IMG/VR virus record: IMGVR_UViG_3300048924_000203
Span: 1-22,231 of that record
From: a virus
DNA: 22,231 bases
Reading direction: 5' to 3' (one strand)
The translations under genes were made by a program, and so were the position numbers. The notes beneath the pieces are model-generated. The model worked only from the letters and a program-made list of their open reading frames with translations, was not told the origin of the DNA and searched no databases. This document shows, in pieces, positions 20,264 through 22,231 of this stretch (its first letter is position 1; each line of letters starts with the position of its first letter).

Positions 20264-20469
20264 CAGGTTTGCGTGACCTGATCCGCGACAACATCGGCGG
20301 AGTCCTGGCCGTGTTCGATGAGCACGAGGCCGGCATCTACTCGGCCGAAGACATCGGCACCGAGGAAGACCGGTACAGCTGCCCGCAGAAGTGCGCATTC
20401 ATTGGGACACAGTCGGAATGGTGCGACCACCTGGCCGACAAGCTGGCCGATGCGTTGGAGGCGAAATGA
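20260..20469 (+). CDS. Small acidic protein, 69 aa
   Basis: GGAGG (20249-20253) precedes ATG 20260 by 6 bases. The protein is acidic with CPQKCAFIGTQSEWC, a CxxxC and a third cysteine. It overlaps both neighbours by 4 bp. Function unknown; the acidity leaves room for an inhibitor or anti-regulator role, which is speculative. Confidence 0.5.
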   Translation: MTGLRDLIRDNIGGVLAVFDEHEAGIYSAEDIGTEEDRYSCPQKCAFIGTQSEWCDHLADKLADALEAK

Positions 20470-20774
20470 ACCCCTATCTCGACACGGTCGAAGAAGAAGA
20501 CAAGCCGGTCAAGGTGTTGCCGTGTCGGTCCGATCCCGACCAGTGGTTCGTGGAAGCCACGACCCCGCGCAACAGTGAGGTCGTCGACGCCGTGATCCGC
20601 GAGTGTCTCCGGTGCCCAGCACTCGATGCGTGCGGTGAACTAGCGGCGAAAATCCGGCCGACGCACGGGGTGTGGGCAGGCCGGGACTGGACGAAGCCCC
20701 CGTCTCATCAGCCGCGCGGTGACCGAATCACGCGGCAGCACATGGCCGGTGCCCGAAAGAGAGAAGCGACGTAA
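20466..20774 (+). CDS. WhiB-family iron-sulfur transcription factor, 102 aa
   Basis: Four cysteines (20, 47, 50, 56) in LPCRSDPDQWF...ECLRCPALDACGELA and the following GVWAG (68-72) turn are the WhiB signature for a [4Fe-4S] cluster. A basic C-terminus (TRQHMAGARKREAT) can bind DNA. Phage WhiB proteins, as in TM4, can replace or block a host WhiB and change cell division or superinfection. It is the last gene before a hairpin, so it may also time late transcription. Confidence 0.85.
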   Translation: MNPYLDTVEEEDKPVKVLPCRSDPDQWFVEATTPRNSEVVDAVIRECLRCPALDACGELAAKIRPTHGVWAGRDWTKPPSHQPRGDRITRQHMAGARKREAT

Positions 20775-20791: not shown

Positions 20792-20812
20792 TTTGCATAC
20801 CGTTAAAGCCCT

Positions 20813-20841
20813 ACCAATGCCCCACCAATGCACCACCAATG
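20813..20841. repeat. Three ACCAATG repeats at 11-bp spacing
   Basis: ACCAATG occurs at 20813, 20824 and 20835, exactly 11 bp apart, in the 103-base gap after the WhiB hairpin. The repeated unit is close to CCCCACCAATG. A protein binding site with one turn of the helix per copy is the simplest reading. A half-site ATGCACC (20828-20834) resembles the palindromes at 21521-21727. Confidence 0.5.
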
Positions 20842-20877
20842 CCCCACTTAAAAGGACATGACTACTGGAGGATGAGA

Positions 20878-21069
20878 ATGACAGTCGCGCAACGCCGTTG
20901 GGCATCGAAGGCCACGTTGGCCAAATATCTCGACGTGGACCCAGAGACCATCGAACGGTGGCGCGAACAGGGGCTGATCACGGCGTACCGGTGCGGGCCC
21001 AAGCTATTGCGGTACGACATCGCTGAGATCGACGACATGATCACCTCCAGCACCGAGGTGGCCAGCTGA
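20878..21069 (+). CDS. MerR/AlpA-like HTH protein, 63 aa
   Basis: GGAGG (20867-20871) is directly in front of ATG 20872 but 6 bases before ATG 20878, so 20878 is the start. The sequence RWASKATLAKYLDVDPETIERWREQGLITAYRCGPKLLRYDIAEID is a typical excisionase or AlpA winged HTH. A second gene of this fold is at 1784. This copy lies beside the putative replication gene and may regulate it or help the initiation complex. Confidence 0.65.
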   Translation: MTVAQRRWASKATLAKYLDVDPETIERWREQGLITAYRCGPKLLRYDIAEIDDMITSSTEVAS

Positions 21070-21092
21070 TGACCGCAGCGAGGCGGCGATAG
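21069..21092 (+). CDS. Seven-codon minicistron between two genes
   Basis: ATGACC...GATAG (7 codons and a stop) begins on the last base of the HTH gene (TGATG) and ends on the first base of the next gene (TAGTG). It could carry ribosomes from one gene to the next, but it is also short enough to be chance; AGGCGG before the GTG start is an independent ribosome site. Confidence 0.25.
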   Translation: MTAARRR

Positions 21093-21583
21093 TGGGACGC
21101 CGCAACCCCATCCACGTCATCGGTGACCCGATCCGGAAGGGCGTCACCTGGCTGTCCGATGAACTGATCCGGTCCGGGGCGCACGACGACGCCCTCGGAT
21201 CAGATGGCTTCGTCGTCATCGCGTTCCTGTTGTCGTGGGCGACCTCGCCGGACACGGCGAATCGTGTCTGGGAAACGTCCGCTGCCCACATATCTGAGCA
21301 TTTCGGGTGGGGCGCCAACCGTCGGCGCGCTACCAAGGCCATCGAATCGGCCGTCAAAGACGGACGTCTCATCGTCCGGGAGTACTTCCAGAACGGACAG
21401 ATCGTCCCTCGGCGCCGTGCCTATGTCGTCGCCGCCGGCGGCCGCCGATTCACCGACAAGGAACGCCTGTGCTGGTCCGATCCGATTCGTATCCCTGACC
21501 GCAAGGCCGCCGACTCCGACTTGCACCAGAACGGTGCAACGCCGATGCCCGGTTCTTGCACCACAAAGGTGCAAGACCGATGA
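21092..21583 (+). CDS. Putative replication initiator, winged-helix protein, 163 aa
   Basis: GTG 21092 starts the frame after AGGCGG. The protein has VIAFLLSWATSPDTANRVWETSAAHISEHFGWGANRRRATKAIESAVKDGRLIVREYF, the shape of a winged-helix replication or replisome-organiser protein: helices, an RRRA recognition helix and a wing. Its C-terminal 20 codons contain two copies of the TTGCACC/GGTGCAA palindrome (LHQNGA, SCTTKV). As in lambda O, an initiator gene that carries its own binding sites would place the origin there. The replication role is inferred from this layout; a regulatory HTH protein is the alternative. Confidence 0.55.
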   Translation: MGRRNPIHVIGDPIRKGVTWLSDELIRSGAHDDALGSDGFVVIAFLLSWATSPDTANRVWETSAAHISEHFGWGANRRRATKAIESAVKDGRLIVREYFQNGQIVPRRRAYVVAAGGRRFTDKERLCWSDPIRIPDRKAADSDLHQNGATPMPGSCTTKVQDR

Positions 21584-21727
21584 CCACGACATGCACCAGA
21601 ACGGTGCAACTTCAGACGGCAAATACGGCGCCAACCTTGCACCTTTTCTTGTGCAACATCACGGCCCGCACCATGCACCGTTCCGGTGCAACATCGCGGC
21701 CCGAACCTTGCACCAACGGTGGTGCAA
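21521..21727. repeat. Six TTGCACC-N5/6-GGTGCAA palindromes; candidate iteron origin
   Basis: Copies start at 21521, 21556, 21591, 21637, 21673 and 21708, each 19 or 20 bp, with arms (T/A)TGCACC and (G/T)GTGCAA and a 5- or 6-base spacer. Start-to-start distances are 35, 35, 46, 36 and 35 bp. A shorter relative, ATGCAC-TGC-GTGCAA, lies at 21802-21816. Two copies are within the end of the putative initiator gene and four in the 338-base gap (21584-21921). The repeat number, spacing and place next to a winged-helix gene suggest an iteron-type origin or a cooperative operator. Confidence 0.8.
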
Positions 21728-21737
21728 CACAGGACAA

Positions 21738-21759
21738 CCTACTTACTTACGTAAGTAGG
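21738..21759. promoter_or_regulatory. AT-rich palindrome after the iterons
   Basis: CCTACTTA (21738-21745) and TAAGTAGG (21752-21759) pair around CTTACG, and a second register, TACTTAC/GTAAGTA (21744-21757), is also perfect. It is the most AT-rich structured spot just right of the repeats. It could be an unwinding element, an operator or a weak terminator. The rest of the gap to 21921 has no gene that I can see. Confidence 0.5.
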
Positions 21760-21921
21760 AACCTCACGTCCAGCAGGGGGATTGGGACAACCAAACCCGT
21801 CATGCACTGCGTGCAAGACGGATCCAAAAACCCCTACCGCAACGTGACTGCCCAATCACCGAAGCAACTCAGCCATCGAGGTAACCAACAGACCGCACGC
21901 ACGGAGAGAACGGAGCGACCG

Positions 21922-22231
21922 ATGCCCGACCGATACGGAGAACCCGACGACGAACCGATCGTGGATCTCGATGCGCCTGTCACTGATTTTGATTCGGGGC
22001 GTCGTGCTCGTGAAGCGGCCGCCGCGCGTCAGCGCGCCAGTGAGCAGCGCGGCCGGTTGGCTGAATCCCGTGCTGTTCACGCGCCGCTCGACTCCGCCCA
22101 GTCCGCGGCTGTCCGGCAGCATCGGCACGCTGTCACCGATCGGGCTGAGGCGTGGCGCCGCGCCGCGCGGATCGCGAACTGCCCGCTGTGTGACGACGAG
22201 GGCTACACGCCTGGGCTGATGATTTGCGACC
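21922..22231 (+). CDS. Charged phage protein with a zinc-knuckle-like end (partial)
   Basis: ATG 21922 follows ACGGAGAGAACGGAG and the frame stays open to the window end (103 codons). The N-terminus is acidic (DDEPIVDLDAPVTDFDSGRR), then a long charged Arg/Ala/Gln helix, then CPLCDDEGYTPGLMIC, the first half of a zinc ribbon or a DnaJ-like knuckle. Similar frames occur after replication genes in mycobacteriophages. The function cannot be named from this part. Confidence 0.6.
   Translation, partial: MPDRYGEPDDEPIVDLDAPVTDFDSGRRAREAAAARQRASEQRGRLAESRAVHAPLDSAQSAAVRQHRHAVTDRAEAWRRAARIANCPLCDDEGYTPGLMICD

What the first reader, a model, noticed from the sequence alone, without database searches (positions are those of the whole stretch)
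21521..21727. Six regularly spaced TTGCACC/GGTGCAA palindromes overlapping the end of a putative initiator gene
Seen: six 19-20-bp palindromes at 35-36 bp steps (one step is 46, about one helical turn more), with the first two coding and the others in a gene-free gap, plus a shorter seventh copy at 21802. Known: lambda O and similar initiator genes carry their own iterons. Inference: this is the phage replication origin, with the 21092-21583 protein as the initiator. The palindromic, not direct, type of iteron is unusual.
Basis: partly seen in the sequence, partly recalled or inferred. Interest (0 to 1): 0.75.

Follow-up and report, generated by a model that had tools for sequence, protein, structure and literature searches.

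The report
Phage replication origin: phased palindrome ladder
Next to a small DNA-binding gene of a mycobacterial virus lies a ladder of evenly spaced palindromes that every known relative keeps, almost certainly the site where the gene's protein docks to start copying the viral DNA; it works like the classic phage lambda origin, but this mycobacterial family appears to be undescribed.

Summary
Six 19-20 bp palindromes stand at 21521-21727 and a short seventh at 21802; none occurs elsewhere in the 108,881-bp virus record. Every homologue found of the 21092-21583 protein (52 mycobacteriophage records, other viral contigs, Mycobacterium prophages) carries the ladder beside the gene, and no ladder was found without it. 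Rung spacing is about 25, 35.5 or 46 bp, so changes come in whole helical turns. Half-sites switch together within a lineage (WTGCAC, ATGCCC, GTGCAC), as expected for one dimeric protein reading duplex DNA. In three related phages the same slot holds either this gene plus ladder (Sejanus) or a different annotated replication-initiation protein (Mask, Mao1). Best explanation: a lambda-O-like initiator with its iterons, an A+T-richer segment and a covarying terminal hairpin. Binding and replication are untested. New variant of a known kind.

The parts
21092..21583 (+). ORF1: putative initiator, 163 aa, predicted winged-helix protein (phrog_14897); conserved part is about residues 1-140, the tail encoded by rungs 1-2 is absent from most homologues
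   Evidence: phrog_14897 E=2.7e-52, annotated 'unknown function'; 65% identical to Sejanus gp85 'RepA-like replication initiator'; AF2 pLDDT 80, pTM 0.71, tail below 60; alignments A1/A2
21521..21539 (.). rung 1 TTGCACCAGAACGGTGCAA (inside ORF1 tail)
21556..21574 (.). rung 2 TTGCACCACAAAGGTGCAA (inside ORF1 tail)
21591..21609 (.). rung 3 ATGCACCAGAACGGTGCAA
21637..21656 (.). rung 4 TTGCACCTTTTCTTGTGCAA, a 20-mer; several relatives also have a T-tract 20-mer at the matching rung
21673..21691 (.). rung 5 ATGCACCGTTCCGGTGCAA
21708..21727 (.). rung 6 TTGCACCAACGGTGGTGCAA, a 20-mer
21732..21792 (.). candidate DNA-unwinding segment: GGACAACC direct repeats at 21732-21739 and 21785-21792 flanking the palindromic TACTTACTTACGTAAGTA tract (21738-21759)
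   Evidence: least stable 60 bp from ORF1 start to hairpin+300 is 21736-21795; same place in 12 of 16 lineages
   Evidence: all 150 pair cells standard, 3 pairs with compensatory changes; keeps ATGCAC/GTGCAA where the ladder has switched to ATGCCC
21580..22231 (+). ORF2: open frame starting at the ATGA overlap with the ORF1 stop, through the ladder and on to 22458 (beyond the window); likely translated but not conserved as peptide
   Evidence: open through the ladder in 12 of 14 lineages without an inserted gene; frame shared in only 40% of identical columns against 99.6% in ORF1
21922..22231 (+). downstream zinc-finger gene (to 22458), related to phrog_21540 and to the C-terminal part of phrog_3171 replication initiation proteins; lies in the same frame as ORF2; absent at this place in Angel
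20878..21069 (+). small MerR-type HTH gene upstream; not the array's partner, since counterparts sit in Mask and Mao1, which lack the array

Best explanation
This is the replication origin of a temperate mycobacterial phage. ORF1 is a small winged-helix initiator that binds each rung as a dimer, one subunit per WTGCAC half-site (inferred). Rungs about 3.4 helical turns apart (sometimes 2.4 or 4.4) put successive dimers at a constant rotation of about 0.4 turn, so 5-10 dimers can wrap the DNA into one nucleoprotein complex (spacing shown, wrapping inferred). The strain opens the neighbouring A+T-richer segment with its pair of short direct repeats; the covarying terminal hairpin then marks the single-stranded side where host helicase or primase is loaded (inferred). 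The gene-plus-ladder is a cassette that can be exchanged for other initiator cassettes.
For: Linkage: the same 52 phage records hold ORF1 and the array; 9 of 9 viral-contig and 7 of 7 Mycobacterium-genome homologues found have the ladder; the viral-contig ladders found by DNA pattern all have ORF1. Phasing: step modes 25.25, 35.4 and 46.3 bp (n=10, 53, 5). Duplex half-sites: the outer A/T position shows no pairing covariation (45 pairs, 44.1 expected), and whole ladders switch half-site. Natural swap: Sejanus and Mask are 99.7% identical on the right flank, but the slot holds ORF1+ladder or a phrog_3171 replication initiation protein (E=7.5e-86); Mao1 has phrog_3926 (E=6e-40) there. Selection on DNA: array nucleotide identity equals that of ORF1 while the frame is not kept. 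Gideon carries a 446-bp insertion exactly between ORF1 and rung 1, leaving both intact. Fold matches include phage HTH and RepA-like initiators. Submitters already call Sejanus gp85 and GoldenAsh gp46 'RepA-like replication initiator'.
Against: No binding or replication data exist. ORF1 has only a DNA-binding-sized domain and no lambda-O-like partner domain; no DnaB-type helicase was found in G000, and the zinc-finger gene is not at this place in all relatives. The A+T-richer segment is weak (41-55% A+T against 32-39% in ORF1) and is not the least stable stretch in 4 of 16 lineages. No significant match to a solved initiator structure. GC skew gives no support.
Confidence: 0.84

Rival explanations
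1. The ladder is an operator array through which ORF1, or another phage regulator, controls early transcription; ORF1 is a regulator, not an initiator.
For: ORF1 looks like a bare DNA-binding domain; the ladder lies inside an early-type operon; initiators often also autoregulate.
Against: In Mask and Mao1 the slot is filled by genes of replication-initiation families; the ladder lies downstream of, not at the promoter of, ORF1; the known cluster G (BPs) repressor operators have a different sequence (CGACATATGTCG) and are dispersed over the genome (PMC4557955); the flanking hairpin and A+T-richer segment are unneeded.
Confidence: 0.1
2. The palindromes act as hairpins in RNA or single-stranded DNA, for example an attenuator or structured transcript.
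For: Each rung can fold; the terminal element covaries.
Against: The rungs' outer position does not covary; mixed half-sites (ATGCCC with GTGCAA) break the stem in L075/L077; spacing moves in whole helical turns, which single strands do not need; no Rfam match. This may still hold for the terminal hairpin alone.
Confidence: 0.03
3. The array is a partition centromere (parS-like) or a packaging site.
For: Phage parS loci are short-repeat arrays (PMC7157519).
Against: No ParA-type match to PF01656 in G000 (only this one family was tried); G000 carries an integrase gene, as does Angel; no ParB or terminase is linked; mycobacteriophage parS repeats are 8-bp direct repeats.
Confidence: 0.03

Closest known systems
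Phage lambda ori and O protein
   Same: Initiator gene and iterons overlap or abut; iterons are 18-19 bp inverted repeats bound by dimers; an A+T-rich stretch lies next to them (PMC5043065, PMC6022878)
   Different: No detectable sequence relation to O; no partner-binding domain seen; 5-10 rungs at about 35 bp instead of 4 iterons; ladder at or after the 3' end of the gene; covarying terminal hairpin
RepA_N initiators and semi-palindromic iterons (plasmid pTZ2162, V. cholerae satellite PLE RepA)
   Same: DNA-binding dimer on semi-palindromic iterons next to a mobile element's own origin (PMC7145576)
   Different: No RepA_N Pfam match; PDB fold matches not significant
RepA-like origins of extrachromosomal mycobacteriophage prophages (Miko, CRB1)
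   Same: HTH initiator in mycobacteriophages
   Different: The authors found no repeats there (PMC7157519); those serve plasmid-like prophages, whereas phages with this ladder, such as Angel, carry integrases
phrog_3171 and phrog_3926 mycobacteriophage replication initiation proteins (Mask gp84, Mao1 gp83)
   Same: Occupy the same genomic slot
   Different: Unrelated sequence; other or no repeats

Membership tests
lambda O / ori-lambda type origin | Tandem 18-19 bp inverted-repeat iterons in or next to the initiator gene | tested here: met
   definition in PMC5043065 and PMC6022878
lambda O / ori-lambda type origin | A+T-rich unwinding segment beside the iterons | tested here: inconclusive
   least stable 60 bp lies there in 12 of 16 lineages, but it is only moderately A+T rich
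lambda O / ori-lambda type origin | Initiator with DNA-binding domain plus a C-terminal domain that binds the helicase loader (P) | tested here: not met
   ORF1 is about 140 conserved residues; only a weak sub-threshold Pfam match
lambda O / ori-lambda type origin | O-type dimers bind each iteron | not testable with these tools
   needs EMSA or footprinting
RepA_N initiators | RepA_N N-terminal domain | tested here: not met
   no Pfam RepA_N hit; PDB fold hits not significant
phrog_14897 protein family | Profile match over the domain | tested here: met
   E=2.7e-52, residues 14-143
parABS partition site | Linked ParA ATPase | tested here: inconclusive
   no PF01656 match in G000, but other ParA-type families were not tried and the record may be incomplete

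The most novel reading that the evidence does not exclude
The origin is kept translatable on purpose: a frame started at an RTGA overlap with the initiator's stop runs through the ladder and stays open in nearly all lineages although its peptide is not conserved, so ribosomes (or the transcription they protect) crossing the origin may be part of how it is activated or timed.
Probability: 0.3. Interest if true: 0.72.

Novelty: new variant of a known kind. Interest (0 to 1): 0.52.

Why it matters
It supplies a precise, testable candidate for the lytic replication origin of cluster G mycobacteriophages and a wider family of Mycobacterium prophages; I found no published description of it in the open-access library searched. 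The natural initiator swaps (Sejanus, Mask, Mao1) and the lineages whose half-sites have switched together (WTGCAC to ATGCCC or GTGCAC) give ready-made material for asking how an initiator and its origin change specificity together.

Tried and rejected
Chance origin of the array: rejected. Coding-repeat explanation (the ladder as a conserved peptide): rejected by the frame test. Hairpin reading of the rungs: rejected by lack of covariation and by mixed half-sites; kept open for the terminal hairpin. Upstream MerR-type HTH gene as the binder: rejected, since counterparts occur without the array in Mask and Mao1. The known BPs repressor as binder: its operators have a different sequence. Fusion of ORF2 with the zinc-finger gene as the true initiator C-terminus: in Sejanus the zinc-finger gene is separate and in Angel it is absent at this place, so the shared frame in the window is probably coincidental. 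GC-skew support: not found. Nothing useful: Rfam, NCBIfam, PDB sequence search (one hit at E=2e-5 on a repeat protein over 26 residues, taken as spurious), plasmid collection. BPs and Halo could not be checked; the accessions I tried, from memory, are not in the collection. One gapped viral-contig pattern failed for technical reasons.

Full report
Observation. The window holds six palindromes WTGCAC-n7/8-GTGCAA starting at 21521, 21556, 21591, 21637, 21673 and 21708, and a short copy ATGCACTGCGTGCAA at 21802. These are the only matches in the window; a first-order Markov null gives 0.01 on average. In the whole 108,881-bp virus record the family occurs only here.

The gene. The 21092-21583 product is phrog_14897, annotated as unknown function, 65% identical to Sejanus gp85, which its submitters call a RepA-like replication initiator, and about 60% identical to cluster G phages such as Angel, where most records say hypothetical protein. 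With 15 sequences AlphaFold2 gives pLDDT 80 and pTM 0.71: a winged-helix-like core up to about residue 140 and a disordered tail. The best viral structure matches are phage HTH proteins, including Gordonia phage RepA-like initiators; no solved structure matches significantly. The window's tail (residues 144-163, coded by rungs 1-2) is missing in most homologues, whose stop codons lie before or just inside the ladder. The overlap with the gene end is thus variable, not a fixed feature.

Linkage. The 52 phage records that encode a homologue are as many as those found by nucleotide search with the array, and the same phages. Homologues from viral contigs and from Mycobacterium genomes all have the ladder next to the gene. 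Scanning 2.9 million viral contigs for two adjacent rungs recovered six true ladders, all beside the gene; the other hits are unrelated repeats. In L068 and L078 an extra open frame stands between gene and ladder. In phage Gideon a 446-bp insertion stands exactly before rung 1, with gene and ladder intact; its length suggests an MPME mobile element, but I did not test that. Gene and ladder can be separated by a few hundred bases but have not been found one without the other.

Geometry. Across 16 lineages the centre-to-centre steps fall at 25.25, 35.4 and 46.3 bp on average (10, 53 and 5 cases). The classes differ by about one helical turn, so insertions and deletions between rungs keep the rotational phase. 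This indicates proteins on duplex DNA that touch one another.

Half-sites. The outer base is A or T independently on the two sides (45 pairing combinations, 44.1 expected), so the rungs are not selected as hairpins. Note that positions 2-6 were fixed by the search pattern and are uninformative there. Whole ladders have changed half-site together: mostly ATGCCC in L075 and L077, GTGCAC in L069, WTGCAC elsewhere, and mixed ATGCCC/TTGCAC rungs exist. This is what one dimeric protein reading each half independently would leave. L046, a close relative of L075/L077 (tree), still has WTGCAC; the proteins differ near the predicted recognition helices (A65V, S68A and the G74-N76 region in window numbering, alignment A2), a lead only.

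DNA or peptide. A frame beginning at an RTGA overlap with the ORF1 stop is open through the ladder in 12 of 14 lineages without an inserted gene, while the two other forward frames are open in 2 and 1. In one of the 12 (L063) the overlap is CTGA, so its start codon is doubtful. Yet in pairwise alignments only 40% of identical columns are in the same frame (33% expected by chance), against 99.6% in ORF1, although nucleotide identity is the same (64% and 65%). The DNA is conserved and the peptide is not. That the frame nevertheless stays open is not explained; my suggestion is that translation coupled to ORF1 protects transcription through the origin, as transcription through the origin activates lambda ori (PMC5043065).

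Flanking elements. After the last rung comes the least stable 60 bp of the region in 12 of 16 lineages, with two short direct repeats whose sequence varies between lineages but tends to be shared by both copies (GGACAACC in most; AAGAAAACCC in the L046 group; seen by eye). Then comes the terminal hairpin CCGTC-A-TGCAC / GTGCA-A-GACGG: every one of 150 pair cells is a standard pair and three pairs show compensatory changes. In L075/L077 it keeps ATGCAC/GTGCAA although the rungs have changed, so it is a different element from the rungs.

Natural swap. Sejanus and Mask are 99.7% identical on the right of this locus and 96% on part of the left, yet the slot between a small HTH gene and a zinc-finger gene holds ORF1 plus ladder in Sejanus and a phrog_3171 replication initiation protein in Mask (E=7.5e-86). 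Mao1, more distant, has phrog_3926 there (E=6e-40) with its own short direct repeats behind it. Unrelated initiators filling one slot is the best functional evidence available without experiment.

Mechanism. I infer that ORF1 dimers bind the rungs, wrap the phased ladder, open the A+T-richer segment and expose the hairpin side for the host replisome. Shown: the array, its conservation, phasing, half-site behaviour, linkage and swap. Inferred: binding, wrapping, opening and loading. How a protein this small recruits a helicase is open; no DnaB-type helicase was found in G000, and the neighbouring zinc-finger gene, related to the C-terminal part of phrog_3171 initiators, might help in some relatives but is not present at this place in all.

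Compared with what is known. Lambda ori consists of nearly perfect 18-19 bp inverted repeats bound by O dimers beside an A+T-rich stretch (PMC5043065, PMC6022878), so palindromic iterons are the expected type here. ORF1 has no detectable kinship with O and lacks its second domain, so it works like lambda O but is not filed as a member. RepA_N-type iterons (PMC7145576) are also semi-palindromic, but ORF1 has no RepA_N match. The RepA-like origins of extrachromosomal mycobacteriophage prophages showed no repeats (PMC7157519). I found no paper describing this ladder, within an open-access library that lacks most subscription journals.

Limits. Lineages are related, so counts are not independent. 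The frame and stability tests rest on 12-16 sequences. GC skew does not help: the change at the ladder ranks 78th-87th of 480 positions in the part of G000 read, and is of opposite sign in Angel. The G000 record may be incomplete, and its host is inferred from relatives only.

Noticed in passing
window 20812-20847: Three short direct repeats of the form CCAATGC(C/A)CC(A) in tandem (period about 13) just upstream of the small MerR-type HTH gene at 20878; a possible regulator site or second repeat array.
   Followed up: no
window 20469-20774: WhiB-like gene upstream of the origin; Jeon has a WhiB gene just before its replication initiation gene, and L010 has a WhiB-like frame just after the ladder.
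   Followed up: partly
L082 942-1388 (phage Gideon): A 446-bp insertion, MPME-like in length, sits exactly at the first base of rung 1, between the initiator gene and the ladder, leaving both intact.
   Followed up: yes
L065 3433-3827: In a Mycolicibacterium palauense prophage five rungs are repeated in the same order 208 bp further on, a segmental duplication of most of the ladder.
   Followed up: partly
L022 3816-3971, L043 357-512, L040 4578-4740: Other viral contigs carry arrays of different palindromes (ATGCACCA..TGGTGCAC and similar) at other spacings without this gene; possibly unrelated origins or operators.
   Followed up: no
L007 6808-7343 (Sejanus gp86): The annotated gp86 joins the ladder frame to what looks by eye like an HNH homing endonuclease, so its first part is probably not a real protein domain.
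   Followed up: partly
G000 22670-23686, just beyond the window end (L011 3670-4686): A DNA cytosine methyltransferase-like gene lies just downstream of the origin region (read from its sequence, not searched).
   Followed up: no
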